Counted from the stretch's first letter, positions 4,576 through 17,201 are shown. The stretch is DNA of 64,000 nt from a virus (IMGVR_UViG_3300044634_000910:1-64000), one strand, 5' to 3'. Notes: generated by a model not told the origin, from the sequence alone. Made by a program: numbers and translations.

Positions 4576-4581
4576 TAGTAT

Positions 4582-4746: not shown

Positions 4747-4898
4747 GCTATGAGAGAGATGATTTAGATAACATGGTTCTTGCTATTGATTCTGCTTTAA
4801 CTACCGTGAATCCTGACGATGACCCCTGGTTACACAGAAACCTAACACAAGCCTCAGACTTCTTGTCAGGGCTATGGGCAGAAGGGTACTTTGACTAA
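4740..4898 (+). CDS. hypothetical protein (52 aa)
   Basis: Overlaps both neighbours (the downstream junction is TAATG). Acidic, with a conserved-looking C-terminal helix (ASDFLSGLWAEGYFD). Function unknown. Confidence 0.65.
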   Translation: MLGYERDDLDNMVLAIDSALTTVNPDDDPWLHRNLTQASDFLSGLWAEGYFD

Positions 4899-5113
4899 TG
4901 TGGACTAAGTATGATTATCTATGTACTGATTGTGATGCTCTTATAGAGATTACTGCTTGTGCTGAGAAGGTTCTTGATCCCGCCTGCATTTGCGGGGGAT
5001 TAGGAATAGTTATCCTATTATCACAGGGAGATGGAGCAGGACCTCTCCTGGAGCCTGTGACGAAGGTCACACCCCCTAAACTTGTAAAAATCAACACGAA
5101 CCCGTATAATTAA
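4898..5113 (+). CDS. zinc-ribbon-like small protein (71 aa)
   Basis: CxxC (CTDC) near residue 9 and a second pair (CIC) near residue 31 suggest a small zinc ribbon. The C-terminal 30 residues are Pro/Lys rich. Start overlaps the previous stop. The promoter of the next gene lies inside its 3' end. Confidence 0.65.
   Translation: MWTKYDYLCTDCDALIEITACAEKVLDPACICGGLGIVILLSQGDGAGPLLEPVTKVTPPKLVKINTNPYN
5082..5110 (+). promoter_or_regulatory. internal promoter, leaderless gene
   Basis: TTGTAA (5082-5087), 17-base spacer, TATAAT (5105-5110), ATG at 5118. It is embedded in the end of the preceding gene. Confidence 0.65.
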
Positions 5114-5117
5114 TACT

Positions 5118-5330
5118 ATGGACCTAAAAACATTCGAAGAATATGTAAGACTACACCTGCTGTCCTTGGAGCAAGACTCTGAGGAACTACAGAAGCAAAT
5201 GGGCTTCTATGATGACTATGATTGCGATGAGTATAAGGATTTGGAGATAGAAGATATTTCTACCAATGGACAGATTCTTGCCTGCTACCACTTCTTATCA
5301 GTATTAGAGGCTACAATAGATGAGCGATAA
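5118..5330 (+). CDS. acidic helical hypothetical protein (70 aa)
   Basis: Probably leaderless from the promoter at 5082. Strongly acidic (DDYDCDEYKDLEIED) between two helices. No family recognised. Overlaps the next gene by 11 bases. Confidence 0.7.
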   Translation: MDLKTFEEYVRLHLLSLEQDSEELQKQMGFYDDYDCDEYKDLEIEDISTNGQILACYHFLSVLEATIDER

Positions 5331-5580
5331 TACTACCCTTGACCCATATCTACGCAAGCAAGTTGATTTAGGTATGGACGGGGCAGACATAATGCACGGC
5401 CACCTAAAGACTATGATGTATGAGGCTGAAAAGCAATTGGCTGAGTATGCTGACAACGATGATGAACAGTATGACCAAACAGTTAATCGTTTACACCTTG
5501 AAGGATATCTTGAAGGTTTGTCAGAACTATATAGTTTGACATATGCTATTGCTTTTGCCAAAGGAGAAGTTAATGGATAA
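5320..5580 (+). CDS. hypothetical protein (86 aa)
   Basis: Helical acidic protein; residues 40-80 look like a helical hairpin (HLEGYLEGLSELYSLTYAIAFAKGE). Encodes the ribosome site AAGGAG of the next gene in its last codons. No function recognised. Confidence 0.7.
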   Translation: MSDNTTLDPYLRKQVDLGMDGADIMHGHLKTMMYEAEKQLAEYADNDDEQYDQTVNRLHLEGYLEGLSELYSLTYAIAFAKGEVNG

Positions 5581-5959
5581 CTTCATTGAGATGACAATGG
5601 ATGAGTGGGAAGCCACTTACAAACCTATCTATAATCATATAGACAAAAATGCTTCCTTTCAGGATGAATCAGGTAATGGCATTATGTTTGAGACCTACGG
5701 CGATGAGGTAGAGTTTGTTAAGTCTCAATCCCCTGCCAATATCTGGATGTATGGTTCTGGCGATGACGGTGGCACCTACATCTGGAATGGCTGGGGATTT
5801 GTAAATAGATTAGGATACTTTATCACTGAAGTACCCTGCCCGACTGGTCTGACCATTCAGGTACAGGTAGGAGAGCCTGACTTGACATGCGACTACTGCG
5901 GTGATATACTTGATGAAGAACTAACCCACGACCCACTATGCGAAGGAATACAAGAATGA
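5573..5959 (+). CDS. hypothetical protein with CxxC (128 aa)
   Basis: The start at 5573 is chosen for the AAGGAG site upstream; an in-frame ATG at 5543 lacks one. Aromatic/Gly-rich middle (WMYGSGDDGGTYIWNGWGF) and a C-terminal CDYCGD, which may form half a zinc site with a later Cys (DPLCEG). Unknown function. Confidence 0.7.
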   Translation: MDNFIEMTMDEWEATYKPIYNHIDKNASFQDESGNGIMFETYGDEVEFVKSQSPANIWMYGSGDDGGTYIWNGWGFVNRLGYFITEVPCPTGLTIQVQVGEPDLTCDYCGDILDEELTHDPLCEGIQE

Positions 5960-6333
5960 CAGAAACAGACAACCTAACACTTATCGGACAATTTTTTGTA
6001 GATAGCGGTCAAGCAATGATTGGCGACCCGTGCTATTTAGATGAATGGAAGCATTGGGATAGCGGTTCAGATATCCCATTTGAGGAGCACAAAAATCGTA
6101 ATGGCGAGTATGGTTACCTTGGTGCCGCTAATGCTACTCTAAGCAAAAATGGCTATGGAGTCTTAGGCACTGAAGTTATTGAAGGTACTGGAATAACAGG
6201 AACCAATGCTGGTTCGGCAGTTGTTTTTTCTACAGGGTATGGAGACGGAGTCTATCCTGTATACGCAGACATTGACGAAGATGGTCGTGTTGCTCGTATT
6301 GTTATTGAATTTATTACAGATGAGGATAACTAA
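5956..6333 (+). CDS. conserved phage-type protein with DPCYL motif (125 aa)
   Basis: ATGA overlap with the previous gene. Its core (VDSGQAMIGDPCYLDEW) followed by a Gly-rich segment and VVFSTGYGDGVYPVYADID matches a pattern I associate with small proteins in many phages and bacteria. No biochemical role is known to me. Length and start are consistent with the family. Confidence 0.7.
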   Translation: MTETDNLTLIGQFFVDSGQAMIGDPCYLDEWKHWDSGSDIPFEEHKNRNGEYGYLGAANATLSKNGYGVLGTEVIEGTGITGTNAGSAVVFSTGYGDGVYPVYADIDEDGRVARIVIEFITDEDN

Positions 6334-6479
6334 TGTCAGAATTTAAAGTAGAGATTATCTTTGAGCCAACAGGCGACTACATGACATTTAGATACGATGC
6401 TGAATCAGATAATGAAGCAGACCTTATCAATGAAATACTAAACCAACTATCAATCGTATCTTTTAAGGAGCAAGACTAA
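6333..6479 (+). CDS. hypothetical protein (48 aa)
   Basis: TAATG overlaps at both ends. Short alpha/beta acidic product; carries AAGGAG for the next gene at its 3' end. Unrecognised. Confidence 0.65.
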   Translation: MSEFKVEIIFEPTGDYMTFRYDAESDNEADLINEILNQLSIVSFKEQD

Positions 6480-6841
6480 TGGGAGCCCGTATCAACTTTG
6501 TATTTAAAGACGTTGAGGATGAAGCACACGTAGTCCTATATAGCCACTGGGGTGAGACTGAATGGCAGCGGGACTTGGCAATGGCACTGGAGCACTCTAA
6601 GCCACGCTGGAAAGACTATGCTTACTTCACCCGCATGATGATTAGTTATTTTATTCAAGACTCCGTGCTTGAAGAAACAGGGTTTGGAATTTATTCTATC
6701 AAGGGTACCAACTTTGAATTAGGCGAGACCACTATCGTTATCGATATCGCTAAAGAAACCGTCTATGAGGCAGGCAAGGACCTGCAGGTCGACTGGCAGT
6801 TATTTATTAATGCCTATATACCAAAAACCGTTAGCGCTTAG
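6479..6841 (+). CDS. hypothetical protein (120 aa)
   Basis: Start overlaps the previous stop. Features: RINFVFKD strand, SHWGE, an amphipathic helix with RMMISYFIQDSV and a C-terminal LQVDWQLFI. It resembles small uncharacterised phage proteins with the pattern 'VVLYSHWGE'. Last gene of the 4582-6841 operon. Confidence 0.7.
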   Translation: MGARINFVFKDVEDEAHVVLYSHWGETEWQRDLAMALEHSKPRWKDYAYFTRMMISYFIQDSVLEETGFGIYSIKGTNFELGETTIVIDIAKETVYEAGKDLQVDWQLFINAYIPKTVSA

Positions 6842-6850
6842 CGCAGCATA

Positions 6851-6881
6851 TGATCAGTGCGGATGGGTCCCTCACTGATTA
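6851..6881 (+). terminator. hairpin after small-gene operon
   Basis: ATCAGTG (6853-6859) pairs with CACTGAT (6873-6879), extendable by two base pairs. No U-tract follows, so this may be a factor-assisted terminator or an mRNA 3' stabiliser. The rest of the gap to 6963 holds only a promoter. Confidence 0.45.
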
Positions 6882-6917
6882 ACTAAATAAGGATAGGGAC
6901 GGCGTAGCCTGTAGGGG

Positions 6918-6946
6918 TTGCGCCTCCCTTCCCCTTCCTGTATAAT
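6918..6946 (+). promoter_or_regulatory. promoter for 6964 operon
   Basis: TTGCGC (6918-6923), 17-base spacer, TATAAT (6941-6946), followed by an ordinary ribosome site (GAGGAG) and ATG at 6964; this transcript has a short leader. Confidence 0.6.
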
Positions 6947-6963
6947 AGATAAAGAGGAGAGAC

Positions 6964-7206
6964 ATGGCGTACAGCGTTCGTAGGAAACCCGAAAGCACTA
7001 AAGAAATACAGTACTCTAATCGCATGGCTAAGTTATTAACTGAGGACATGGGACTTAACTTGGAAGCACTCGGCTTTCATTTAGTACATAACCACCCTGT
7101 CATTGTATCTCGCAGACTCGAAGTCGTTGCATTGACAGCGGGGGAAGAGTATGATAAAATGATGTCAGGGTACTTAGGAAAGGATTACACAGAACTATGG
7201 AAGTAA
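6964..7206 (+). CDS. hypothetical protein (80 aa)
   Basis: Good ribosome site (GAGGAG) and own promoter. Basic N-terminus, then HLVHNHPVIVSRR, a strand-rich His segment, and a helical C-terminus. Overlaps the next gene by 10 bases. Unrecognised. Confidence 0.7.
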   Translation: MAYSVRRKPESTKEIQYSNRMAKLLTEDMGLNLEALGFHLVHNHPVIVSRRLEVVALTAGEEYDKMMSGYLGKDYTELWK

Positions 7207-7493
7207 ACTTTACAGATAGATGTGGCATTTTAGGACAGTTTTGGTATGAGTTCAGAGATGATGAGGATCTAAAGCCTTTCATCTCATACAACGATGTTGG
7301 CTTGCCACTTGCTTGGTTTATTGCAACGGGAGTAGTAACACCACTACCAATGGCTGAGGAGTATGTCAACGAAACATTCGCTATGTTCCTTGATGCAATG
7401 GAAGTAACAGAGGACGATGTCCTTGATGTTGATAATCTTGATGACCTGTTAGCAGTAGTTGAGTTAAAGAAAAGCGAAAGAGAAGCGGAGTAG
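7197..7493 (+). CDS. hypothetical acidic protein (98 aa)
   Basis: Resembles small uncharacterised actinophage proteins: CGILGQFWYEFRDDEDLKPF near the N-terminus, then YNDVGLPLAWFIATG and an acidic helical tail. Function unknown. Followed by a GC hairpin. Confidence 0.7.
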   Translation: MEVNFTDRCGILGQFWYEFRDDEDLKPFISYNDVGLPLAWFIATGVVTPLPMAEEYVNETFAMFLDAMEVTEDDVLDVDNLDDLLAVVELKKSEREAE

Positions 7494-7501
7494 CCAAGGC
7501 T

Positions 7502-7517
7502 GCACCCTTCGGGGTGC
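7502..7517 (+). terminator. UUCG-loop hairpin
   Basis: GCACCC-TTCG-GGGTGC: a 6-bp stem capped by the very stable UUCG tetraloop, 8 bases after the stop of the 7197 gene. No U-run. Confidence 0.6.
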
Positions 7518-7662
7518 GCCCTAGGTGATCTAGAAAATATACCACACATATCAAACCTTGTCAAATCAAATAGGGGTATTACGAACCTTATCAAAAATTT
7601 CCCAGAATCTTATTACGATGGTTTGAAAAAAATTCCCAGAAGTTTACCATATCAAACCTTAT

Positions 7663-7692
7663 TTGTCAAACCTTTATATCCAGGTGTATAAT
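7663..7692 (+). promoter_or_regulatory. promoter, leaderless gene
   Basis: TTGTCA (7663-7668), 18-base spacer, TATAAT (7687-7692); ATG at 7699, 6 bases downstream. Confidence 0.7.
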
Positions 7693-7698
7693 AAAGAT

Positions 7699-7929
7699 AT
7701 GTCCCCACACCACTTTGCAGCAATGTATAGAAACCCATCACATAGACATGATGCAGATCATGACTCTATAGGGTTTGATAAAGCCATTGGTGCATTAACT
7801 GGTATGTTGTATTCTATTGTTACTCTTAAGGCTTTCTTTCCTTCATCCCCCGCCCCAGAAATGAATCATAATCCTGTTAAGGATGCCGCAGGCGGGGATT
7901 CAAAGTACACACAACTCACTCTATTCTAA
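7699..7929 (+). CDS. hypothetical protein (76 aa)
   Basis: The start is set by the promoter geometry; the frame is open further upstream but that would include the promoter itself. His-rich N-terminus (SPHHF, SHRHDADHD), one weakly hydrophobic segment (ALTGMLYSIVTL), and a C-terminal TQLTLF. It lies inside the repeat region. Unknown. Confidence 0.55.
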   Translation: MSPHHFAAMYRNPSHRHDADHDSIGFDKAIGALTGMLYSIVTLKAFFPSSPAPEMNHNPVKDAAGGDSKYTQLTLF

Positions 7930-8081
7930 TAACAAACCTCTATAAAGGTATTACGAACGACTCTAAATTTTTCCCTGAGTTTTCAAACCTTTATAGAATT
8001 TTTTTTGATTTTATAAAAAGATTATGATCGTTTCGTAAAAAATCGCTGACTTTTTAAGGGCATATTCATGCATAAAAGGAC

Positions 8082-8110
8082 TTGACAAACCATGGTTTTG
8101 CATGTATAAT
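8082..8110 (+). promoter_or_regulatory. consensus promoter without a clear gene
   Basis: TTGACA (8082-8087), 17-base spacer, TATAAT (8105-8110). No credible ORF begins at its start site. Confidence 0.75.
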
Positions 8111-8131
8111 GCCCAAACCTTATATACTGGT

Positions 8132-8160
8132 TTGACAAATATGGACATATGTGGTATACA
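8132..8160 (+). promoter_or_regulatory. second orphan promoter
   Basis: TTGACA (8132-8137), 17-base spacer, TATACA (8155-8160), 50 bases after the first. The predicted transcript begins in the AAGGTTTG repeats. Confidence 0.65.
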
Positions 8161-8304
8161 AGGTTTGGCGATACAAAGGTTTGGGGATATGAGGTTTGGA
8201 AAGGCCGCATTACGAACGCCCTCTATAAAAACGCACCAGTCACCACTATCCTCCACTTCACTCCACTTTAACCCTATCTAATAATCTAATCAGTAACATT
8301 TATC

Positions 8305-8358
8305 TGTGGATAACATGTGGATAACTATGACATTTTTAGCCTATTGACATGTGGATAA
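8305..8358 (-). other. three DnaA boxes
   Basis: TGTGGATAA, the complement of TTATCCACA, at 8305-8313, 8316-8324 and 8350-8358. All three match the consensus and share orientation. Together with the adjacent repeats this is the best origin candidate in the window. Confidence 0.65.
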
Positions 8359-8372
8359 CTATCTGATATCAT
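8344..8372 (+). promoter_or_regulatory. promoter overlapping a DnaA box
   Basis: TTGACA (8344-8349), 17-base spacer, TATCAT (8367-8372). The third DnaA box fills half of the spacer, so DnaA binding would be expected to compete with polymerase. Confidence 0.65.
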
Positions 8373-8378
8373 AGATAT

Positions 8379-8465
8379 ATGAAACCTTTTCTAATCATAA
8401 TGTTAGGCCTATTCTTATTTCTTAACTACATGGCTTATCTTCAACAAATCCGTATGGGTGGATAA
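8379..8465 (+). CDS. small membrane protein (28 aa)
   Basis: The ATG is 6 bases after the -10 box (leaderless). The product is one hydrophobic span (FLIIMLGLFLFLNYMAYL) with a short basic tail. Too short for the usual gene callers; the promoter geometry is the main support. Confidence 0.5.
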   Translation: MKPFLIIMLGLFLFLNYMAYLQQIRMGG

Positions 8466-8485
8466 AAAACCACGGTATATAAAGA

Positions 8486-8806
8486 TTACGAACACTCCTT
8501 TATAGCCCTATTGACCATACGGATCAACGCCCTACGGGTTATCTTTGAAGCATCAAAGGTCTCTGTGTATCCATTTTGAGGCATATCCGCCTTATCCAGG
8601 AAATGTCCATGTCTTTCCCTTAGTGTTTTTAGTACTATAGATTCGACCTTTCTTGCCTTATCCCGTTCGAAAAAATGCCAATACTTGATCAATATCCAGC
8701 CCTTGGTCCTATGGCTTGCAAACCTTCTACCTGATATGTCTGATATACCTATCTTGACAGCCTTATGTAGTGGGCTGTATAGTATATATAAGACTGTTGA
8801 TTCCAT
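8486..8806 (-). CDS. GIY-YIG-like nuclease (T5orf172/MUG113 type)
   Basis: 106 residues from the ATG at 8806, which lies 6 bases after a TATAAT on the minus strand; longer readings would run through the promoter. N-terminal VLYILYSPLHKAVKIGIS corresponds to the two strands of a GIY-YIG fold (YIL...KIGIS), followed by RRFASHRTKGW with the family's Arg and His. Such proteins are small endonucleases or free-standing homing-type enzymes. It is transcribed divergently from the gene at 8871 and is the only leftward gene before 9263. Confidence 0.7.
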   Translation of the reverse strand: MESTVLYILYSPLHKAVKIGISDISGRRFASHRTKGWILIKYWHFFERDKARKVESIVLKTLRERHGHFLDKADMPQNGYTETFDASKITRRALIRMVNRAIKECS

Positions 8807-8870
8807 GGGTTTATTATACTTGACATACCGTGGCAAATATGGGATACTTAAAATATGAAAGAAGATAATA

Positions 8871-9212
8871 ATGCCTAACAAGAAAAATAAAAAGATAGAC
8901 TGGTCAAATCCAGATAGAAAGATAGATTGGACAAACGCTATAGCCAAGGCTGAGCGTCAATTGGGTAGGAATAAGGCTGCTATTGAGTCATCTGTCATGG
9001 GTACCCCATCAAACTGGTCAAGACCTAACTATAACAAACCTATGGTTGCTCCAGATCAATCCCCTCCAGATGAGAAGGTTAAGAAACCTAAGAAACTAAG
9101 TAAAAAACAACGCAGAGCACACAATAAGGTCTTTGTCCCTCAACAAAAGCAAAAGGCTAAGAGGTCTACGGAAAACCAGGGTTTGCCAATAGTGAAGAAA
9201 GTTAACCAGTAG
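8871..9212 (+). CDS. basic low-complexity protein (113 aa)
   Basis: Very Lys/Pro/Gln-rich. The N-terminus has two similar units (KKIDWSNPDR and RKIDWTNAIAK), followed by a long KKPKKLSKKQRRAHNK stretch that could bind nucleic acid. Probably disordered. No family recognised. A short TGCCC/GGGCA hairpin at 9213-9227 follows the stop. Confidence 0.6.
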   Translation: MPNKKNKKIDWSNPDRKIDWTNAIAKAERQLGRNKAAIESSVMGTPSNWSRPNYNKPMVAPDQSPPDEKVKKPKKLSKKQRRAHNKVFVPQQKQKAKRSTENQGLPIVKKVNQ

Positions 9213-9262
9213 TGCCCGTTTAGGGCATAGGATGGTTTATAACTTCTATTTTGCGCCGAACT

Positions 9263-9595
9263 TTAAACCTCTTTATTTTTTTTATTTTTATGGTATTCCA
9301 TCGCTTCACCGCCGACAAATCGTGGATTGTCTGGATCCCATGACTCAGATGCCAGGTGTGAAACAAACTTACCGCAAGGACACAGCCCTGGAGCGCACTG
9401 ACATGTCTTGCTTGGGTCATTAAGATCTATTTCTTTTGCACCTGCTGGGCGTAGTGGATGAGGCAGTTTGTCTTTGTTTGCCTCTGTTAGCAGCACAAGG
9501 ATTGTATCTTCATTGCAGTAGTTACAAAAAGGCATTTCTCCTGCCAACGGTGTTATTGTATTACCACATATCATACACCTATAGGACATTTCCAT
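9263..9595 (-). CDS. zinc-binding protein with two Cys clusters (110 aa)
   Basis: N-terminal CMICGN...CNYCN (residues 7-25) is a four-Cys ribbon; a second cluster, CQCAPGLCPCGK, follows near residue 65. AGGAAGG upstream supports the 9595 start. It lies leftward between rightward genes. Role unknown; rubredoxin-like or regulatory zinc proteins share such spacing. Confidence 0.65.
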   Translation of the reverse strand: MEMSYRCMICGNTITPLAGEMPFCNYCNEDTILVLLTEANKDKLPHPLRPAGAKEIDLNDPSKTCQCAPGLCPCGKFVSHLASESWDPDNPRFVGGEAMEYHKNKKNKEV

Positions 9596-9653
9596 ATAGT
9601 GACTACCTTCCTAAACAATATTAACTTATTGTATCATATGATATAATCTATAT

Positions 9654-9779
9654 ATGAATAAAACTAAGTGTTTCTTTTGTAAAGAGGATGCAACACATTA
9701 TGATATCGTGGTAGATCACGCTGATTATATTGTTGCAGATGTTTGCTTAGTTCATCTGTCTATGGGCCTTGTATCTTAA
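9654..9779 (+). CDS. small Cys/His protein (41 aa)
   Basis: ATG lies 6 bases after TATAAT (9642-9647). C-x2-C near residue 6 (CFFC) and C-x3-H near residue 31 (CLVHL) form a plausible treble-clef or ribbon zinc site. TAATG overlap with the next gene. Confidence 0.6.
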   Translation: MNKTKCFFCKEDATHYDIVVDHADYIVADVCLVHLSMGLVS

Positions 9780-10018
9780 TGAATAGAAGAATACTTAAAG
9801 ATGGTTCTGAGGTTGACTCTTTTGACAAGCCAGTTGATTTAGTTATTCACACTAAGGCCCCTGGAAAATGGAAACTAATTGATTTAGAAACAGGAGAAGA
9901 GTATCTTGGCTCTGAGATAAGCACTGATTTTGCAGAAGTGCTAAGAGAAAAAGTTAACATTAATAAAATAGGCACTTGGGTAAAAACCAAGTGGAAACAA
10001 AAGCCAGTAGTTGACTAA
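9779..10018 (+). CDS. hypothetical protein (79 aa)
   Basis: Start chosen at the TAATG junction; an upstream in-frame GTG is less likely. Beta-rich (WKLIDLETGEEYLGSEI) with a basic C-terminus (WVKTKWKQK). Unknown function. Confidence 0.65.
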   Translation: MNRRILKDGSEVDSFDKPVDLVIHTKAPGKWKLIDLETGEEYLGSEISTDFAEVLREKVNINKIGTWVKTKWKQKPVVD

Positions 10019-10045
10019 ACCCTTACTTTAAGGTATACTGAATAC

Positions 10046-10330
10046 ATGGAACAATGGATGAACGACTATGCCTCATATATACTTGTACTAAGTGGCGCTG
10101 CCGCTATGTTTACTATTGGCCGTAAGAAGCGATGGGGTTGGCTTTGGTTTATATTTAATGAGTTTATGTGGACAGCATACGCATTGATTACAAAACAATA
10201 TGGATTCATACTTGGTGCCATACTGTATGGTGTGGTTGGAGTTAAATCATATATAAGATGGAAAGAATTGTCGTTAGACAAGCATTCATGGAACAAATTC
10301 TTAAGATTGGTATGGTCACGCAATGATTAA
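10046..10330 (+). CDS. membrane protein, PnuC-like half (94 aa)
   Basis: Leaderless start 6 bases after TATACT (10034-10039). Three hydrophobic segments (about residues 8-23, 30-48 and 53-66) with RKKRWGWLWFIFNEFMWTAYALITKQYG, which resembles the W/N/Y/TKQYG signature region of PnuC-type nicotinamide riboside transporters, but at half the usual length. A transport role is inference; it may be only a membrane protein of similar origin. Confidence 0.55.
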   Translation: MEQWMNDYASYILVLSGAAAMFTIGRKKRWGWLWFIFNEFMWTAYALITKQYGFILGAILYGVVGVKSYIRWKELSLDKHSWNKFLRLVWSRND

Positions 10331-10529
10331 CATGGAGATTCCTGATCCATTTCAAACCTTTGTAGCCAAGAAATATGCTAACGCTAAGGGTTATGTTCAT
10401 GACTTCTTTACTGGGGAATGGTCTTACAAGTGTTTATCATGTAAGGAAGATCTTTCTGCTCCATCCCGCAAAATTATGACAAAGATTAGATTGTTTCACA
10501 CACGCAACGAATGCCTTGGAGGTTACTGA
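10323..10529 (+). CDS. small zinc-finger-like protein (68 aa)
   Basis: Overlaps the previous gene by 8 bases. WSYKCLSCKED and a C-terminal FHTRNECLGGY give a CxxC...H...C set, consistent with one zinc site. An alternative start is the ATG at 10332. Confidence 0.6.
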   Translation: MINMEIPDPFQTFVAKKYANAKGYVHDFFTGEWSYKCLSCKEDLSAPSRKIMTKIRLFHTRNECLGGY

Positions 10530-10675
10530 TGAGAATTAAAGTTAATCGTGGTACACAGACTGCTGGCTACTCTATTGGGTTTTATTTATACAATTGGGGA
10601 TATCCTATTGCCAATGAGTGGGAGTTGGGTATATACTTTTTAAAGTGGTACATAGGAGTGGAGTTGTTTAGATGA
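10529..10675 (+). CDS. hypothetical protein (48 aa)
   Basis: TGATG junction with the previous gene and ATGA with the next. Aromatic-rich short protein (GFYLYNWGYPIANEWELGIYFLKWYIG), possibly membrane-associated. Found only by reading the overlaps. Confidence 0.5.
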   Translation: MRIKVNRGTQTAGYSIGFYLYNWGYPIANEWELGIYFLKWYIGVELFR

Positions 10676-10767
10676 ACGAAGAAGAGTTTGACTTAGAGTT
10701 TACTGTTGAAGAAATGATTAATCTTTATGGTATTAATAGCCTTGAAGATTTAGATAGGATTGACTAA
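10672..10767 (+). CDS. acidic micro-protein (31 aa), paralogue of next
   Basis: Begins MNEEEFDLEFTVEEM; very acidic. The next ORF begins in a similar way (MDTEEEFNLEDIT), so the two look like a tandem duplication. Overlaps both neighbours. Confidence 0.45.
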   Translation: MNEEEFDLEFTVEEMINLYGINSLEDLDRID

Positions 10768-10877
10768 TGGATACTGAAGAAGAGTTTAATTTAGAAGACA
10801 TTACGAACGCCATAGTTAATCAGGCTAAGGCTGATGTTAAGTCTAAGTTTGGTAATAAGAAACGGCATAGACAATGA
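10767..10877 (+). CDS. micro-protein (36 aa), acidic start and basic end
   Basis: TAATG overlap. Acidic N-terminus similar to the previous ORF, but a basic tail (KFGNKKRHRQ). Contains an in-frame ATTACGAAC motif like those of the repeat region. Confidence 0.45.
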   Translation: MDTEEEFNLEDITNAIVNQAKADVKSKFGNKKRHRQ

Positions 10878-10975
10878 TCTGCCCTAACTGTAAAATGGAC
10901 AAAGAAAACATTGAGTACTGGGATACTCATCAAACTATGAGTGATTACAAGGTGTGGTGTGCCAAAAGAGCCTAA
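10874..10975 (+). CDS. micro-protein with CxxC (33 aa)
   Basis: ATGA overlap with the previous ORF. MICPNCKM at the N-terminus and a later Cys (VWCAK) suggest a metal-binding knuckle. Confidence 0.45.
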   Translation: MICPNCKMDKENIEYWDTHQTMSDYKVWCAKRA

Positions 10976-11075
10976 GATTACGAAGATGGACTGGAGAGCC
11001 TTGGGATATTGGCCAGTATATAAGGATGGAAAGAAAGTATGGGAAAAAGATGATAACAAAACATCAGAAGACTAA
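10959..11075 (+). CDS. small hypothetical protein (38 aa)
   Basis: GTG start overlapping the previous ORF; an ATG at 10986 would give 29 residues. The WRALGYWPVYKDGKKVWEKDD segment is aromatic and charged. Overlaps the next ORF by 26 bases. Confidence 0.4.
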   Translation: MPKEPKITKMDWRALGYWPVYKDGKKVWEKDDNKTSED

Positions 11076-11259
11076 AATAGTTCCACTTAGACTCATTGGA
11101 AACATTTGTGGTGGCTTTGCTGGTAACCATTTATTTAAGGCTATGTGTCTTGATGAAGATGGAGACCATGGTTGGCGTTATAAATACCACGGAAAAATGT
11201 GGGTTATTCTAAACAAACCATACACTTGGTGGGGAACGTACTATATTTTAGAAAGATAG
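11050..11259 (+). CDS. hypothetical protein (69 aa)
   Basis: The start at 11050 is preferred over a GTG at 10954 that would bury two other small ORFs. Composition is mixed, with GGFAGNHLFKAMCLDEDGDHGWRY; the C-terminus is rich in Trp/Tyr. Ends 6 bases before tRNA-Glu. Confidence 0.55.
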   Translation: MITKHQKTKIVPLRLIGNICGGFAGNHLFKAMCLDEDGDHGWRYKYHGKMWVILNKPYTWWGTYYILER

Positions 11260-11265
11260 TTCGTT

Positions 11266-11337
11266 GGCTCCATCGTCTATCGGTTAGGACAACGCCCTTT
11301 CACGGCGTAAAGACGGGTTCGATTCCCGTTGGGGCTA
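11266..11337 (+). tRNA. tRNA-Glu (TTC)
   Basis: Acceptor GGCTCCA/TGGGGCT, anticodon stem ACGCC/GGCGT with loop CTTTCAC (anticodon 11299-11301), T arm ACGGG-TTCGATT-CCCGT. No encoded CCA. Confidence 0.93.
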
Positions 11338-11360
11338 CAAAGTTATGGTATTATGTATAC

Positions 11361-12044
11361 ATGGAAAAAATATACTTAGACGAAAACAAAAAGGTCTGGA
11401 TCATAGAAGACTTTCTAACAAAAGAAGAATTAGACTGGTTTAAAACTAATACAGAAGATGTAAATGCTTGGTATCCAACCATGAGATCACCATACAGAAA
11501 CATACTTAATAAGTTTTTAAATATTGTACCAAAGTATAATGCTGATGGAAACATAGAATTTCCAAATGAAAACTCAGAGGTTTTAGAACTTACAGTATTT
11601 TCAAAGCCTGGAGGAATATGGGATAGGCTGGAATCAGTTCTTCCACCAGGATACAAAAGACACGCAACACTTCAAACATTTAAGTACATGACAGATGAAG
11701 AAATTATTAATAATGCAAATGAAGATCTAATGAAAGAGTATGGCGTAGACAGAAACGAAATTGACTTTGCAATGTATTGGCATCAAGATCCAGGCGTAGA
11801 GCACAACATCTTGGCATCTTTCAGTCTTTATTTAAACGATGATTTTGAGGGTGGTGAACTTGAGTTCATGCACCTTCCAATTAAAATTAAGCCAAAGGCT
11901 GGCATGCTTGCTGTAATTCCTGGTGGTAATGAGTATACACACAGGGTAAATAAGGTTCTTGGGCCAAACTCAAGGCATACTCTTTATGGCAATTCTTTTG
12001 TAGACCTTGCATCTGCGCCTGTAAGCACAGCAGATGACTGCTAA
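11361..12044 (+). CDS. 2-oxoglutarate/Fe(II) oxygenase, prolyl-4-hydroxylase-like
   Basis: 227 residues. The start at 11361 follows TATTAT by 6 bases; the longer frame would overlap tRNA-Glu. The double-stranded beta-helix signature is visible: WHQDPG gives the iron ligands H141 and D143, YTHRV gives the distal H194, and RHTLYG (R205) would bind 2-oxoglutarate. DDFEGGELEF is the family's central strand-turn. Such enzymes hydroxylate proteins, peptides or small molecules. It opens a cassette with two GPx genes and a paralogous oxygenase at 13326. The substrate cannot be told from sequence. Confidence 0.88.
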   Translation: MEKIYLDENKKVWIIEDFLTKEELDWFKTNTEDVNAWYPTMRSPYRNILNKFLNIVPKYNADGNIEFPNENSEVLELTVFSKPGGIWDRLESVLPPGYKRHATLQTFKYMTDEEIINNANEDLMKEYGVDRNEIDFAMYWHQDPGVEHNILASFSLYLNDDFEGGELEFMHLPIKIKPKAGMLAVIPGGNEYTHRVNKVLGPNSRHTLYGNSFVDLASAPVSTADDC

Positions 12045-12076
12045 TCTTAAAATAAAAAAGGTGCTATAATAACAAT

Positions 12077-12865
12077 ATGAAATCTATTTACGACATCCAG
12101 TTGGACTCTGCCGAAGGCACTCCAAATTTTCTTGAACAATTTAAAGGCAAAGTAGTTTTGCTAATCAATACCACTGTAGGTTGTGGTAACGCTGGTCAAA
12201 TGGAGTCCATCGAATGGATTCAGGAAGATATGGCAGGAGAAGATTTTACTGTTGTAGCAATTCCTACTAATGATTTCTGTGGTCCAAGCATAACAAAGGG
12301 TAAGTGGTCACAAGGTATTACATGTGGTCTGGACTCTAAGTTATACGGAGAAGATGTTTATGGTGTTACATTCCCATTCTCAGAAATGATCACATCTAAT
12401 CCCGCAGATATTCCATTAGAAGCACCATGGCTTGGCAAGGGTCCAGGACTTAACGGAAACGGTCAGCCTTTTGGAGAAAGACATGAACTTTATTTAGAAA
12501 TCTCTGAGCAGATTAAGGCATTACAGGAAGACAAAAGAGAAAAAGGATTAGTTGAAAAGACAGACTATGAATCAAGATACCTAAATGAGCATAACGGTGG
12601 TGTCATGATGAACGCAAACTTTGAGAAATATTTGATTGATAAGGATGGCTATGTAGTTAAGCACTATCCTGCTACAACATTGAACTGGGATGTAGAGCGT
12701 ACATTAAAGGAAGATCTTGCAGCACAAGGAATTCATGCTTCTATGGGTCCTGACAGATCAGAGTACATCTTCAACGAAGAAAATGCTGTTATCCGTGATC
12801 ACATCGAAAGACTTATGGCTGGCGAACGATCACGCATTAATCCTAACCTTGTTCTATCTAACTAA
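12077..12865 (+). CDS. divergent glutathione peroxidase-family protein
   Basis: 262 residues, longer than a typical GPx (about 160). TATAAT at 12065 lies 6 bases before the ATG. The thioredoxin-like core is clear: FKGKVVLLINTTVGCGNAGQ (Cys36 at the peroxidatic position) and NFEKYLIDKDGYVVKHYPATT. The usual catalytic Gln segment (PCNQF) is replaced by PTNDF and the Trp of WNF is missing, so normal peroxidase chemistry is doubtful. An insertion of about 70 residues (110-175) and a C-terminal extension of about 40 are added. It may be a thiol oxidoreductase or binding protein working with the canonical GPx downstream. Confidence 0.75.
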   Translation: MKSIYDIQLDSAEGTPNFLEQFKGKVVLLINTTVGCGNAGQMESIEWIQEDMAGEDFTVVAIPTNDFCGPSITKGKWSQGITCGLDSKLYGEDVYGVTFPFSEMITSNPADIPLEAPWLGKGPGLNGNGQPFGERHELYLEISEQIKALQEDKREKGLVEKTDYESRYLNEHNGGVMMNANFEKYLIDKDGYVVKHYPATTLNWDVERTLKEDLAAQGIHASMGPDRSEYIFNEENAVIRDHIERLMAGERSRINPNLVLSN

Positions 12866-12883
12866 CAGAAAGCAGAAATTCGC

Positions 12884-13318
12884 ATGAGTATATATGACTT
12901 GTCATTTATTGACAACAATGGTAATGAAATAAAACTGGAAAGTTTTAAAGGAAAAAATGTTTTAATAGTAAATACAGCAAGTCAGTGTGGATACACAAAA
13001 CAGTATGCTGATTTACAAAAAATTCAAAGTGACTCATTAGTTGTAATTGGATTTCCATGCAATCAGTTTGGCAATCAGGAGCCAGGAACAGATCAAGAAA
13101 TTAAAAACTTCTGCACAAGCGTATATGGAATAACATTTCCCATATCTCAAAAGGTAGAAGTAAACGGACCAAACGCTCATCCAATATATAAGTATTGCAA
13201 GGATGTTGCTACTCCAGGTAGAGAAATCGGTTGGAACTTTGAAAAATTCTTAATATCTGTTGATGGTTTGGTCACTCACTACCCCAACTCGTATCCAGTT
13301 TTAGAAATTAAGGTATAA
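12884..13318 (+). CDS. glutathione peroxidase
   Basis: 144 residues with all GPx landmarks: NTASQCGYT (peroxidatic Cys35), FPCNQFGNQEPG (Gln61) and WNFEKFL (Trp117, Asn118), giving the full catalytic tetrad. Cys77 is placed as the resolving Cys of thioredoxin-dependent GPx enzymes. It would reduce hydroperoxides in the cytoplasm; actinobacteria often lack glutathione, so thioredoxin is the likelier donor (inference). Located 18 bases after the divergent GPx. A TATAAT at its very end serves the next gene. Confidence 0.93.
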   Translation: MSIYDLSFIDNNGNEIKLESFKGKNVLIVNTASQCGYTKQYADLQKIQSDSLVVIGFPCNQFGNQEPGTDQEIKNFCTSVYGITFPISQKVEVNGPNAHPIYKYCKDVATPGREIGWNFEKFLISVDGLVTHYPNSYPVLEIKV

Positions 13319-13325
13319 TGATTTT

Positions 13326-14033
13326 ATGGAAAAAACATATTTAGATGGACAAGTTTGGTACATTGAGAACTTTTTAACTGATGAAGAACTATTAATTTTA
13401 AAGAAGTATTGGGATGCTCCTGGTGCTTGGTATGCAACTATGAGATCGCCATATAAAAACATATTAAACAGATGGCCAATGCATGTTCCAGAGCACGAAG
13501 AAGATGGAACTCTTTCAATTCCTACCAAGGACAGTGTAATGGTTCAAGAAGTCCTTGATCTTTTTTCTAATGAAAATGGTATCTGGAAGAGATTAGAATC
13601 TGTTCTGCCAGAAGGATATGCACCCAACAGCGGAATTCAAACATTTAAATATTGTACAGATGAAGAAATAGAAAGAGATAGGGATGAAAGCATGTCTCTT
13701 GGTGATGCAGAAATGCATGCTATTAGATCTAACCCAGAAGATGCTAAGGACATTGACTATGCAATGGACTGGCATTGGGAGGACACTGGTAAATATGGAA
13801 ACAGAGTTGCATCACACTCTATTTATCTTAATGATGATTTTGAGGGTGGAGAAATAGAATTTAGAAGTGGTCACTCAATTCATCCAAAGGCTGGAATGCT
13901 AATTAATATTCCAGTAGGAAAAGAATTTGAGCACAGAGTTAAAAAAGTTCTTGGACCTAACAATAGACATACTCTTTATGGTCAGTGCTGGTCTACTTCA
14001 GAAGTTCCGCTAAGCACTAAAGATGATTGCTGA
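13326..14033 (+). CDS. 2-oxoglutarate/Fe(II) oxygenase, paralogue of 11361 gene
   Basis: 235 residues, clearly paralogous to the 11361 product over its whole length (shared YATMRSPYKNILNRW, SVLPEGY, YLNDDFEGGEIEF, HRVKKVLGPNNRHTLYG and a C-terminal DDC). Iron ligands: H150 and E152 in WHWED (a Glu, or alternatively D153, in place of Asp), distal H203; R214 for 2-oxoglutarate. The HxE variant is unusual. Leaderless start 6 bases after TATAAT (13314-13319), whose last base touches the previous stop. Confidence 0.88.
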   Translation: MEKTYLDGQVWYIENFLTDEELLILKKYWDAPGAWYATMRSPYKNILNRWPMHVPEHEEDGTLSIPTKDSVMVQEVLDLFSNENGIWKRLESVLPEGYAPNSGIQTFKYCTDEEIERDRDESMSLGDAEMHAIRSNPEDAKDIDYAMDWHWEDTGKYGNRVASHSIYLNDDFEGGEIEFRSGHSIHPKAGMLINIPVGKEFEHRVKKVLGPNNRHTLYGQCWSTSEVPLSTKDDC

Positions 14034-14051
14034 TATAAACAAACAACCTTC

Positions 14052-14080
14052 TTGACATTGCTTGTGCATCAGTGTATAAT
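14052..14080 (+). promoter_or_regulatory. consensus promoter, leaderless gene
   Basis: TTGACA (14052-14057), exactly 17 bases, TATAAT (14075-14080), ATG at 14087. Confidence 0.88.
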
Positions 14081-14086
14081 TAATAT

Positions 14087-14254
14087 ATGAGCATAGATGA
14101 TATGATATTAAGAGAAGAAATTGCACGGGAGATAGAAAATATCTCACTTGGTGAAGAAAACGCACAACTAAATGCATTAGGAATGCGTATGCTTGCTGCA
14201 AAGGTAGCAAGAGGAGACAACAATATGTTTGAGAGACAGGTGGATTTTGAATGA
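14087..14254 (+). CDS. small helical protein (55 aa)
   Basis: Leaderless from the 14052 promoter. Acidic amphipathic helices (ILREEIAREIENI, ALGMRMLAAKVARG). Unrecognised. Its stop overlaps the next ATG. Confidence 0.65.
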   Translation: MSIDDMILREEIAREIENISLGEENAQLNALGMRMLAAKVARGDNNMFERQVDFE

Positions 14255-14352
14255 TTAACATATTTTTTTTAATTCCTACAATTATTGTAGGGTTTGCTTT
14301 AGGGTTTGTAGCATGTTATTTTAGAATGACTTATAATGTTGATCAAGGTTGA
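14251..14352 (+). CDS. single-span membrane protein (33 aa)
   Basis: ATGA overlap. Residues 2-24 form one transmembrane segment (FFLIPTIIVGFALGFVACYF). The downstream gene starts inside its end. Confidence 0.5.
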   Translation: MINIFFLIPTIIVGFALGFVACYFRMTYNVDQG

Positions 14353-14803
14353 TATAAGGCCTACTGCTTACATATTTGACGTTGATGGCACATTGGCTAA
14401 TGTAGATCCCTACCTACACCTTGTTCGTGGCTCTAATAGGGACTACAATGCCTTTCATGAGGCTTCTATAGATGCCCTGCCAAACCTGGATGTAGTTGAA
14501 ATGTTAAATAATGCAGTTGCTGACCGACATTCTATCCTTGTTGTAACATCCCGCAAGGAAAAATATCGTGGACTAACATCTATGTGGCTTGCTAAAAATA
14601 ATATTAGATCTCATGGTTTATTTATGAGGTCAGACGACGATAACAGACCAGACTATGAAGCAAAGAAAGATATGCTTGATAAGATAAGTATCCTTTGGAA
14701 TGTTGTTCATGCTGTTGATGATAACCCAAATGTAATAAAGTTGTGGCAAGATCATGACATTCCTACAACAAAGATTGGCACTTGGGATGGGAACAAGGAT
14801 TGA
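14336..14803 (+). CDS. HAD-superfamily phosphatase, PNK 3'-phosphatase-like
   Basis: 155 residues with the HAD motifs: IFDVDGTLA (nucleophile D15, acid D17), VVTSRKEKYRG near residue 70 (motif II with S/T) and VDDNPN near residue 128 (motif IV). The SRKEKYR segment resembles the phosphatase half of phage polynucleotide kinases, which repair 3'-phosphate ends; no kinase P-loop is present. Overlaps the preceding ORF by 17 bases. Confidence 0.8.
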   Translation: MLIKVDIRPTAYIFDVDGTLANVDPYLHLVRGSNRDYNAFHEASIDALPNLDVVEMLNNAVADRHSILVVTSRKEKYRGLTSMWLAKNNIRSHGLFMRSDDDNRPDYEAKKDMLDKISILWNVVHAVDDNPNVIKLWQDHDIPTTKIGTWDGNKD

Positions 14804-14834
14804 ACTTGTCTATGGATTATGGTATGATTAGTTT

Positions 14835-14972
14835 ATGAGCAAACGAGTTAAGAAAATATACAAGTGCAATGAGTGTGAAACTATGATTACTATTATAACA
14901 AAGGTTCACGAACTTCCAGAATCAATTATCTGTCCTTGTGACAGCGTAGCAGAAAATCAAGGTGCAAAGTGA
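14835..14972 (+). CDS. small zinc-ribbon protein (45 aa)
   Basis: ATG 6 bases after TATGAT (14823-14828). YKCNECETM and ICPCDS make a classic two-knuckle zinc ribbon. Overlaps the next start. Confidence 0.6.
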   Translation: MSKRVKKIYKCNECETMITIITKVHELPESIICPCDSVAENQGAK

Positions 14973-15130
14973 AAAAGTCAAACGACAAGGTATCTCAGCA
15001 TAAGATTAAGAGAGCAAACAAAAATAAAAAAAGGATACAGGCTAAGCCACATCTTTCAAAGTTTGAACGCACACAGAAAAAAATTAGAGAAGAACTTCTT
15101 CTTGGTGTGTTACGCCCAACATCTAAATAA
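14969..15130 (+). CDS. basic small protein (53 aa)
   Basis: GTG start overlapping the zinc-ribbon gene by 4 bases. Lys/Arg-rich, Gln/His-containing helix; possible nucleic-acid binding. Unrecognised. Confidence 0.5.
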   Translation: MKKSNDKVSQHKIKRANKNKKRIQAKPHLSKFERTQKKIREELLLGVLRPTSK

Positions 15131-15294: not shown

Positions 15295-15369
15295 GCACCA
15301 GTAGCCAAGTTGGTTAAGGCACCGAACTCATAATTCGGCTATTCGTAGGTTCAAGTCCTACCTGGTGTA
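15295..15369 (+). tRNA. tRNA with CAT anticodon (Met or Ile2)
   Basis: Acceptor GCACCAG/CTGGTGT, anticodon stem CCGAA/TTCGG with loop CTCATAA, T arm GTAGG-TTCAAGT-CCTAC. The CAT anticodon fits elongator Met, or Ile if position 34 is modified to lysidine; sequence alone does not decide. No initiator-type features and no CCA. Confidence 0.9.
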
Positions 15370-15400
15370 CAAAACGAGTGTTAAAGATAGGAGCAAGTTA

Positions 15401-16168
15401 ATGGAAAAGAACGTCATAAAGTTTCATTCTGTTCATCCAGCAAATAATAATAGTGATATGTACAGACCAGAACCCGTTAAAAATCATAAACCACAGTGGT
15501 TTTTAGATAAGGATAAATACTCTAAAGATTCAAATGGAAAATATCGTACAGATCTTTTTAGAAACAGAGAAACCAGGGCATTAGAAATTCACAAGATACC
15601 TTCTTGGAAGTCCTGCCCTGCAATGTTAGATGTTTTTAGTTCTGGATATTATTTATTTACCCCTACAGATATTACATTTAAAGAAAATTTAGAAATAGAA
15701 CATGATGATCAATGGGGAAATGGTGGTGGTGGATGGAAGTTCTGTAGTCCAAGAGGAGTAGAAGATGGAATGCCTCATCCAGAAGGGTATTCTTCTAATA
15801 CCTTCGCTTGGGTTCCTAACTGGAAAATGGAGGTTGATAAAGACTATACAGTTTTGCTTACTCATCCAATTAATATAAATGACCTTCCGTTTAAAACAAT
15901 TTCAGGATTTATTGATGCTTCTAATATTTTAATGGGTACTGGAAATATATCATTTTATATAAAAGAAAATTGGACTGGTACTATCCCAGCGGGTACCCCA
16001 TATGCTCAAGTCATACCTTTTAAAAATGAGTCTTGGTCTTCTGAAATAGTTAACTATACAAATGAACAGATTCAAGAAAATGCACAAAATACATTTGATA
16101 AATATCTTATTGGGCCAGGATTAACAAGATATAAGCAGACTGATTGGTTAAAGAAACATTACGAATAA
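15401..16168 (+). CDS. conserved phage protein, DUF6065-like (255 aa)
   Basis: The start at 15401 has AGGAG upstream; the longer frame starts inside the tRNA. Features: PSWKSCPAMLDVFSSGYYLFTPTDI, VPNWKMEVDKDYTVLLTHPININDLPF and GTIPAGTPYAQVIPF. This pattern matches a phage/bacterial family I recall as DUF6065; function unknown. It lies between two tRNA genes at the end of the rightward block. Confidence 0.7.
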   Translation: MEKNVIKFHSVHPANNNSDMYRPEPVKNHKPQWFLDKDKYSKDSNGKYRTDLFRNRETRALEIHKIPSWKSCPAMLDVFSSGYYLFTPTDITFKENLEIEHDDQWGNGGGGWKFCSPRGVEDGMPHPEGYSSNTFAWVPNWKMEVDKDYTVLLTHPININDLPFKTISGFIDASNILMGTGNISFYIKENWTGTIPAGTPYAQVIPFKNESWSSEIVNYTNEQIQENAQNTFDKYLIGPGLTRYKQTDWLKKHYE

Positions 16169-16327: not shown

Positions 16328-17071
16328 CTAAAAATTTTTATTCCAAAACAATAGATCGTTATCGTATACTTCTTTATCAGTAAAAAAGTTTTGATATATT
16401 TTTGCAATATCTTTACTGTTTAGTTTATTAAAAAGAAATTCTGAATTATTGTTTTTATAACGCTCTCTGTCGATTAAAGAACTATCAAAGTTTATCTTAA
16501 CACCCAAATCATTTGATATCTTATCTACCAAAATAGAATAGTCCATAGACTTTAGATCTGCATGCCTTATCATTAAATTAGTTCTGTCAAGTCTTTCATA
16601 AAGTAACTCTTTGTCTATAAATGTTCCAAATTTGTTATACATTCTTCTTGAATGCGTAACAAGATTAATATCTTCTGGTGTCAAAATAAAGTTTTGAGAT
16701 TGAAAATCTTTTAAATATTTAAGTTGTTCCATCATGCTAAACAAATATTCTTTATCTATATCTAAAATTGTTGATTTATTATTTATTACTTGATCATTTT
16801 CATGATCTATTAAACCCTTTTCATCTGAAACCATGTGTGCAATTAAACTTGCCATAAACTCTGCAGGGTCTCTAAATATAGAAACAATATATGTGCTATC
16901 ATCAATATCTTTATGCCAGCCACCATGCTTGTCAACATTTTGTGGTAGTTGAAGTATCTTTATGCCATTTTCTTCTAAAGTTCTTTCTATTGGCCTAATT
17001 ATATACTCTGTAAAAAATCTTCCACCCGTTTTTGGAATGTGTAAAAAATAAAACTTATTATATTTTTTCAT
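16328..17071 (-). CDS. sulfotransferase-family protein 1
   Basis: 247 residues from 17071 (in-frame ATGs at 17098 and, weakly, 17107 are alternatives). FYFLHIPKTGGRFF near the N-terminus is the 5'-phosphosulfate-binding loop of PAPS-dependent sulfotransferases, and VSIFRDPAEFMASL is the 3'-phosphate-binding segment with its Arg and Ser. The rest is divergent and Asn/Asp/Lys-rich. It would move sulfate from PAPS to a hydroxyl or amine of an unknown acceptor. A second sulfotransferase (27307) and an APS kinase (25989) lie on the same strand. Confidence 0.82.
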   Translation of the reverse strand: MKKYNKFYFLHIPKTGGRFFTEYIIRPIERTLEENGIKILQLPQNVDKHGGWHKDIDDSTYIVSIFRDPAEFMASLIAHMVSDEKGLIDHENDQVINNKSTILDIDKEYLFSMMEQLKYLKDFQSQNFILTPEDINLVTHSRRMYNKFGTFIDKELLYERLDRTNLMIRHADLKSMDYSILVDKISNDLGVKINFDSSLIDRERYKNNNSEFLFNKLNSKDIAKIYQNFFTDKEVYDNDLLFWNKNF

Positions 17072-17201
17072 TATTTTTTTTAGGGTGCTTTGGTTCATAC
17101 GGAGCAACTGCTGACTTTATACGACCATCTTTGTATAATCTAACAATCCATCCATCTTTAATCTGAATAGGGTTAAACGCTGATGCTTTTTTCTTTGGCA
17201 T
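17058..17201 (-). CDS. small basic protein (47 aa)
   Basis: AAGGAA precedes the ATG. DGWIVRLYKDGRIKSAVAPYEP looks like a small beta-hairpin repeat unit; Lys-rich tail. The stop overlaps the sulfotransferase start, supporting that start choice. Confidence 0.6.
   Translation of the reverse strand: MPKKKASAFNPIQIKDGWIVRLYKDGRIKSAVAPYEPKHPKKNNEKI

What the first reader, a model, noticed from the sequence alone, without database searches (positions are those of the whole stretch)
11361..14033. Oxygenase-GPx-GPx-oxygenase cassette
Two paralogous 2-oxoglutarate oxygenases flank two glutathione peroxidase-family genes, each unit with its own leaderless promoter or tight spacing. The symmetric order suggests a duplicated or jointly acquired module. 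The peroxidase could protect the cell from oxidants made during infection, while the oxygenases hydroxylate a common target. I know no described phage cassette with this order.
Basis: partly seen in the sequence, partly recalled or inferred. Interest (0 to 1): 0.65.

Follow-up and report, generated by a model that had tools for sequence, protein, structure and literature searches.

The report
Phage oxygenase operon with odd GPx
A phage of freshwater actinobacteria carries a conserved mini-operon of iron-dependent oxygenases and two glutathione-peroxidase-fold proteins, one of them from a large, apparently virus-only family with a rebuilt active site whose relatives in other phages sit beside proline-rich tail proteins, which makes the puzzling role of phage 'prolyl hydroxylases' testable.

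Summary
The four genes are real, at the stated coordinates, but the symmetric order is not the unit. In 53 of 59 viral contigs the conserved core is OxA-GpxL-GpxS. OxB follows GpxS only in 4 close kin; elsewhere it lies after OxA (5), before OxA (5), or was not found. Trees reject a duplicated Ox-GPx unit. Leaderless -10 promoters precede OxA, GpxL and OxB. A whiB gene points to an actinobacterial host.

OxA and OxB are intact 2OG-Fe(II) oxygenases (P4H/PHD2-like fold) in a clade marked by WYxTMRSPY and a C-terminal Cys. GpxS is a textbook 2-Cys peroxidase. GpxL is not: in 91 of 91 sequences the tetrad Gln is Asp and the Trp is Gly, Ala or Cys, while Cys36, Asp66, Cys68 and Asn181 are invariant; none was found in cellular genomes.

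GpxL and two further GPx-like subfamilies recur beside 2OG-oxygenase clusters in other phages, many directly downstream of FN3-(FFPP)n tail proteins (oxygenase downstream 30/37, upstream 0/21). Best reading: an oxygenase-centred protein-maturation module with a thiol-redox partner. The window's substrate is unknown, and plain ROS defence remains a serious rival.

The parts
11266..11338 (+). tRNA-Glu (TTC) immediately upstream; 27 of 52 OxA relatives also have a tRNA within 120 nt upstream
   Evidence: ARAGORN
11349..11354 (+). -10 box TATTAT (extended, TGG before it), 6 nt before the OxA ATG: leaderless promoter
   Evidence: the TATNAT box is conserved in OxA relatives with upstream sequence
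11361..12044 (+). OxA, 2OG-Fe(II) oxygenase, 227 aa, HxD...H + R205, C-terminal ...STADDC
   Evidence: Pfam PF13640 8.5e-8, PHROG 61, alignment A3, model pLDDT 92 with P4H/PHD2-like fold
12065..12070 (+). -10 box TATAAT, 6 nt before the GpxL ATG: leaderless promoter
   Evidence: some relatives keep the -10 box but gain an AGGAGGT-bearing leader
12077..12865 (+). GpxL, 262 aa, GPx-fold protein of a phage family with a rebuilt active site (C36, D66, C68, N181)
   Evidence: PF00255 1.3e-9, 91-sequence column counts, Foldseek to GPX8 and other GPx
12884..13318 (+). GpxS, 144 aa, canonical 2-Cys GPx-type (thioredoxin-type) peroxidase: C35, Q61, C77, W117, N118
   Evidence: PF00255 1.2e-38, PDB hits to GPx and HYR1, 39-sequence column counts
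13314..13319 (+). -10 box TATAAT overlapping the GpxS stop codon, 6 nt before the OxB ATG: leaderless promoter
13326..14033 (+). OxB, 2OG-Fe(II) oxygenase, 235 aa, HxE...H, C-terminal ...STKDDC; positionally variable member
   Evidence: PF13640 1.3e-7, alignment A3, gene orders

Best explanation
The locus is an accessory operon of a phage of freshwater actinobacteria, with core OxA-GpxL-GpxS and optional paralogue OxB, transcribed from leaderless promoters. OxA and OxB are active 2OG-Fe(II) oxygenases, most likely protein (prolyl-type) hydroxylases. GpxS is a thioredoxin-type peroxidase that removes peroxide. GpxL belongs to a phage GPx-like family that kept the peroxidatic Cys and the Asn, lost the tetrad Gln and Trp, and gained Asp66 and Cys68; it most likely works as a thiol oxidant or redox partner in maturing the oxygenases or their substrate (disulfide formation or Cys protection), not as a classical glutathione peroxidase. 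Together they form an oxygenase-centred protein-maturation module. SHOWN by sequence: gene content, order, conservation, catalytic residues, promoters, actinobacterial host marker, recurrent association with 2OG oxygenases. INFERRED: hydroxylation of a protein, the chemistry of GpxL, the identity of the substrate.
For: OxA-GpxL-GpxS in 53 of 59 contigs with this GpxL subfamily, with short gaps; purifying selection, median dN/dS 0.09-0.13. HxD/E...H triad and 2OG Arg kept in all 14 aligned oxygenases; P4H/PHD2/ALKBH-like fold. GpxL C36, D66, C68 and N181 in 91 of 91, tetrad Gln and Trp in 0 of 91; GPx fold, top Foldseek hits GPX8/'PDI-peroxidase' (modest model). Independent contexts: GpxL inside clusters of up to seven oxygenases + DUF6065; two other GPx-like subfamilies sharing the C-[GA]-N and D-F-(x)-C signature occur as a tandem pair between FFPP tail proteins and 2OG oxygenases wherever the upstream sequence is held. 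FFPP proteins have oxygenases within 4 kb downstream in 30/37, upstream in 0/21 (Fisher 3.5e-10).
Against: The window record has no FFPP protein and no candidate substrate beside the cassette. 23 of 99 sampled GpxL loci show no oxygenase nearby. GpxL and the OxA clade are not strictly linked genome-wide. No enzymatic data. The GpxL model is of medium confidence (pLDDT 73), with low-confidence loops that include Cys36, so C36-C68 proximity is unproven.
Confidence: 0.45

Rival explanations
1. Plain ROS-defence auxiliary genes: both GPx proteins detoxify peroxide in the infected, peroxide-sensitive actinobacterium; the oxygenases are unrelated accessory genes in the same hot spot.
For: Kavagutti et al. 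2019 (PMC6802176) already list glutathione peroxidases among ROS-defence genes of freshwater phages and use whiB to call actinophages. 'Ca. Planktophila' needed added catalase for axenic culture (PMC7527133, citing Kim et al. 2019). GpxS is a complete 2-Cys peroxidase. Many relatives carry a thioredoxin gene close by. whiB is in the window.
Against: GpxL has lost two of four tetrad residues and conserved an alternative set in 91 of 91. GpxL and other GPx-like subfamilies recur next to 2OG oxygenases in unrelated contexts. In one humic lake acI-B actinobacteria were not sensitive to H2O2 (PMC3965437). No thioredoxin was found in the window's own record.
Confidence: 0.35
2. Small-molecule or glycan tailoring: the oxygenases and GPx-like proteins modify a surface glycan, lipid or metabolite together with nearby sulfotransferase, carbamoyltransferase and SGNH genes.
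For: Sulfotransferase-like gene at 16328-17107 (weak); SGNH and carbamoyltransferase-like genes directly follow GpxS in several relatives (names are my reading of the sequences); 2OG oxygenases often tailor natural products (general knowledge).
Against: These neighbours vary between relatives while OxA-GpxL-GpxS stays. The fold neighbours of OxA are mainly protein prolyl hydroxylases and AlkB-type enzymes.
Confidence: 0.12
3. Chance neighbours: unrelated accessory genes collected behind a tRNA gene in a recombination hot spot.
For: A tRNA lies within 120 nt upstream of OxA in 27 of 52 contigs; OxB moves around; units have their own promoters, so genes can be inserted singly.
Against: The core order is kept across contigs whose OxA proteins are down to 65% identical, and the same theme recurs with other GPx-like subfamilies.
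Confidence: 0.08

Closest known systems
Thioredoxin-type glutathione peroxidases (yeast HYR1, poplar GPX5; PF00255)
   Same: GpxS has the full tetrad C35-Q61-W117-N118 and resolving C77; PDB hit 3cmi HYR1 at 4e-38
   Different: GpxL keeps only the Cys and Asn; Gln is replaced by Asp and Trp by Gly/Ala/Cys; it adds an invariant C68 and an insertion of about 60 residues
Human GPX7/GPX8 (PDI peroxidases)
   Same: GPX8 gives the best Foldseek hits of the GpxL model; as a working analogy, a GPx-fold thiol oxidant beside prolyl hydroxylases
   Different: The resemblance rests on a medium-confidence model; GpxL lacks the Gln and Trp of the tetrad and its second Cys lies elsewhere; no ER or secretion context
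Prolyl 4-hydroxylases (Bacillus anthracis P4H, PHD2; chlorella virus PBCV-1 P4H)
   Same: PF13640 family, HxD/E...H triad, similar fold (TM about 0.5)
   Different: Only 11-16% identity in the structural matches; a clade-specific WYxTMRSPY motif and a C-terminal Cys; substrate unknown
Cyanophage 2OG-Fe(II) oxygenases (Syn9, S-PM2)
   Same: Same PHROG (61) and several copies per phage (PMC3037559, PMC2984593)
   Different: No GPx partner described in the passages read; the hypotheses there are DNA repair or 2OG modulation
Phage-mediated ROS defence (Kavagutti et al. 2019, PMC6802176)
   Same: Freshwater phages, many of them actinophages, with GPx genes
   Different: That paper lists glutathione peroxidases among ROS-defence genes; its text does not mention oxygenases (0 occurrences) and I saw no divergent GPx family in the passages read

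Membership tests
2OG-Fe(II) oxygenase superfamily (PF13640), for OxA and OxB | Fe(II) facial triad HxD/E...H | tested here: met
   H141-x-D/E...H194 in all 14 aligned sequences
2OG-Fe(II) oxygenase superfamily (PF13640), for OxA and OxB | Basic 2OG anchor and double-stranded beta-helix fold | tested here: met
   R205 invariant; model pLDDT 92, Foldseek to P4H/PHD2/ALKBH
Prolyl 4-hydroxylase, for OxA and OxB | Hydroxylation of peptidyl proline | not testable with these tools
   Fold neighbours include P4H, but AlkB and others as well
Trx-type glutathione peroxidase, for GpxS | Catalytic tetrad Cys-Gln-Trp-Asn | tested here: met
   C35, Q61, W117, N118 in 39 of 39
Trx-type glutathione peroxidase, for GpxS | Resolving Cys (2-Cys, thioredoxin-dependent type) | tested here: met
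   C77 in 39 of 39; the electron donor itself was not tested
Canonical glutathione peroxidase, for GpxL | Catalytic tetrad Cys-Gln-Trp-Asn | tested here: not met
   Cys and Asn kept; Gln->Asp in 91 of 91; the residue before the Asn is Gly, Ala or Cys, never Trp
GPx-fold superfamily (PF00255), for GpxL | Pfam GSHPx above the gathering score | tested here: met
   38.1 bits against cut-off 27
FFPP tail protein / 2OG-oxygenase module | FN3-(FFPP)n tail protein in or near the operon | tested here: not met
   No FFPP match in the window's own record; two of nine other long records with this cassette have such an operon elsewhere in the genome
Anti-phage defence systems (PADLOC) | Match to a specific defence model | tested here: not met
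   Only the generic '2OG' CRISPR-associated model matches OxA and OxB; none matches GpxL or GpxS

The most novel reading that the evidence does not exclude
Phages carry an undescribed virion-maturation system: suites of P4H-like 2OG oxygenases and a virus-restricted GPx-like superfamily (Cys-Gly/Ala-Asn ... Asp-Phe-(x)-Cys, no tetrad Gln or Trp) that hydroxylate and oxidatively fold proline-rich FN3-(FFPP)n tail proteins, some with hypervariable Cys-rich tips, a bacterial-virus counterpart of collagen processing. The window's OxA-GpxL-GpxS cassette is a stand-alone offshoot acting on another surface or virion protein.
Probability: 0.33. Interest if true: 0.85.

Novelty: new variant of a known kind. 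Interest (0 to 1): 0.6.

Why it matters
Phage 2OG oxygenases are common auxiliary genes in aquatic viruses, and how viruses use prolyl 4-hydroxylase has been called cryptic (PMC9301287). A conserved partner (GPx-like proteins with a rebuilt active site) and, in sister systems, a directional link to one kind of proline-rich tail protein turn that into a testable question with named enzymes and a candidate substrate. It also warns that some phage 'glutathione peroxidases' counted as ROS defence may not be peroxidases.

Tried and rejected
Duplicated Ox-GPx unit: rejected by trees and orders. Isolated phages: only ordinary GPx at 23-28% identity to GpxL; for GpxS one annotated GPx in Stenotrophomonas phage TS-12 at 45%. 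Defence system: no. Thioredoxin in the window's own record: none. Proline-rich substrate in the window: a PA14 plus PT-repeat protein at 32312-34147 was noted but no link could be shown. Strict linkage of the OxA clade with GpxL: not found. Papers on actinophage peroxidase plus oxygenase: none held.

Full report
WHAT IS THERE. The window lies in an 80,434-base virus record. Four + strand genes occupy 11361-14033: OxA, GpxL, GpxS and OxB. Pfam puts OxA and OxB in PF13640 and GpxL and GpxS in PF00255, all above the curated cut-offs. A tRNA-Glu ends 22 nt before OxA. The record encodes WhiB at about 21.5 kb. WhiB is used as an actinophage marker because it is restricted to Actinobacteria (PMC6802176, PMC10202952, PMC8612146), so the host is very probably an actinobacterium; that it is a freshwater one rests on the relatives and the literature, not on a direct test.

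PROMOTERS. TATTAT or TATAAT stands exactly 6 nt before the ATG of OxA, GpxL and OxB. Window-wide, + strand TATNAT-to-ATG spacing peaks at 6 nt (12 cases; 0-4 at every other spacing from 0 to 20). In relatives the OxA box (mostly TGGTATNAT) and the GpxL box (mostly TGNTATAAT) are conserved, and in some relatives GpxL keeps the box but gains a leader with AGGAGGT. The OxB box overlaps the GpxS stop codon. GpxS has no such box.

THE CONSERVED UNIT. Three scans of viral contigs brought in relatives. Among 59 contigs with this GpxL subfamily the orders are: 39 OxA-GpxL-GpxS, 5 OxA-OxB-GpxL-GpxS, 5 OxB-OxA-GpxL-GpxS, 4 OxA-GpxL-GpxS-OxB (the window type, close kin), 4 partial and 2 with GpxL but no GpxS. 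The core is thus OxA-GpxL-GpxS, and OxB is an optional, mobile paralogue. Among 24 non-redundant contigs mean identity is 77% (OxA), 87% (GpxL) and 76% (GpxS), with median dN/dS 0.11, 0.09 and 0.13: all three are under purifying selection. A tree separates GpxL from GpxS and bacterial GPx on a long, supported branch (long branches, quick method). OxB forms a clade next to OxA. The symmetric picture is not a duplication of an Ox-GPx unit.

THE ENZYMES. GpxS keeps C35, Q61, C77, W117 and N118 in 39 of 39 sequences, the pattern of thioredoxin-type 2-Cys GPx. GpxL is different: in 91 of 91 sequences C36, D66, C68, W77, H136 and N181 are invariant, the tetrad Gln is Asp, and the tetrad Trp position is Gly, Ala or Cys. 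Its model has a GPx fold with GPX8/PDI-peroxidase as top hits, but it is only of medium confidence with a weak active-site loop. OxA/OxB keep the HxD/E...H triad and the 2OG Arg in all 14 aligned sequences. The OxA model is good (pLDDT 92), and its nearest solved folds are P4H, PHD2 and ALKBH enzymes. This oxygenase clade is marked by WYxTMRSPY and by a cysteine as the very last residue: 85 of 86 against 3 of 184 other oxygenases of the same loci.

BEYOND THE WINDOW. One large group of GpxL genes lies inside operons of up to seven 2OG oxygenases with phrog_7084/DUF6065 proteins and an SDR. Those operons start behind a roughly 300-residue protein with FN3 domains, (FFPPFFPP)n repeats and a C-terminal tip that is Cys-rich and differs from phage to phage. 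Searching for the FFPP repeat by DNA pattern alone gave loci in which a 2OG oxygenase lies within 4 kb downstream in 30 of 37 and upstream in 0 of 21 (Fisher p = 3.5e-10; the loci are not all independent). Neighbouring genes are tail-fibre and other tail proteins. Two more GPx-like subfamilies appear there, sharing the Cys-Gly/Ala-Asn and Asp-Phe-(x)-Cys signature and the loss of the tetrad Gln and Trp; they occur as a tandem pair in the fixed order FFPP > GPx > GPx > oxygenases (> DUF6065). Two long relatives of the window phage that carry OxA-GpxL-GpxS also have an FFPP/oxygenase/DUF6065 operon next to tail-fibre genes; the window record has no FFPP protein.

MECHANISM. The best-supported reading is an oxygenase-centred protein-maturation module: OxA/OxB hydroxylate a protein, GpxL acts as a thiol oxidant or redox partner, GpxS clears peroxide. 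Shown: genes, order, residues, promoters, recurrent association. Inferred: protein as substrate, the chemistry of GpxL, the identity of the target. The main rival is plain ROS defence, already proposed for freshwater phages with GPx genes (PMC6802176) and attractive because 'Ca. Planktophila' depends on external catalase (PMC7527133), although acI-B was not sensitive to H2O2 in one lake (PMC3965437). GpxS fits that rival well; GpxL does not. Glycan or metabolite tailoring and chance neighbourhood behind a tRNA are less likely.

NOVELTY. Phage GPx genes and phage 2OG oxygenases are each known. What I did not find described are the conserved OxA-GpxL-GpxS order, the GpxL family with a rebuilt active site, the C-terminal-Cys oxygenase clade, and the linkage of GPx-like proteins and 2OG oxygenases to proline-rich tail proteins; the literature search was limited to the open-access library held here. 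I file it as a new variant of known kinds. All counts come from IMG/VR contigs, which are redundant and partial, and no function was measured.

Noticed in passing
L210:761-1696 and L388, L430, L440, L434-L451: FN3-(FFPP)n tail proteins head operons of 2OG oxygenases, DUF6065 proteins and GPx-like proteins; in many the C-terminal tip is Cys-rich and hypervariable between related phages.
   Followed up: partly
L365, L385, L374, L381, L336: Further GPx-like subfamilies (HCGN, GCGNI, ECAN types) share the D-F-(x)-C signature and lack the tetrad Gln and Trp.
   Followed up: partly
window 4570-15000: A leaderless promoter class (TATNAT exactly 6 nt before ATG) recurs on the + strand; 12 sites in the window, most in this early region.
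   Followed up: yes
OxA/OxB C-termini, window 12036-12041 and 14025-14030: This oxygenase clade ends in Cys (85 of 86; ...DDC/EDC), unlike other phage oxygenases (3 of 184); role unknown.
   Followed up: partly
window 32312-34147 (-): Protein with a PA14 domain and long PEPTPEPS (PT) repeats; a relative begins like a signal peptide; possible surface or virion adhesin.
   Followed up: no
window 23997-25550 (-): Flavin-dependent tryptophan halogenase (PF04820, 1e-103).
   Followed up: no
window 15365-16168 (+): phrog_7084 protein; relatives sit inside the 2OG-oxygenase operons of other phages, where a neighbour of the same cluster type matches DUF6065.
   Followed up: partly
window 16328-17107 (-): Weak sulfotransferase-like gene (phrog_3347), conserved near the cassette in several relatives.
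   Followed up: no
L339, L349, L376: Some FFPP proteins end in a ...AG...HNK stretch, reminiscent of Hint/intein C-termini; not tested.
   Followed up: no
relatives of the window: A tRNA gene lies within 120 nt upstream of OxA in 27 of 52 contigs (mostly tRNA-Glu), suggesting an insertion hot spot.
   Followed up: partly
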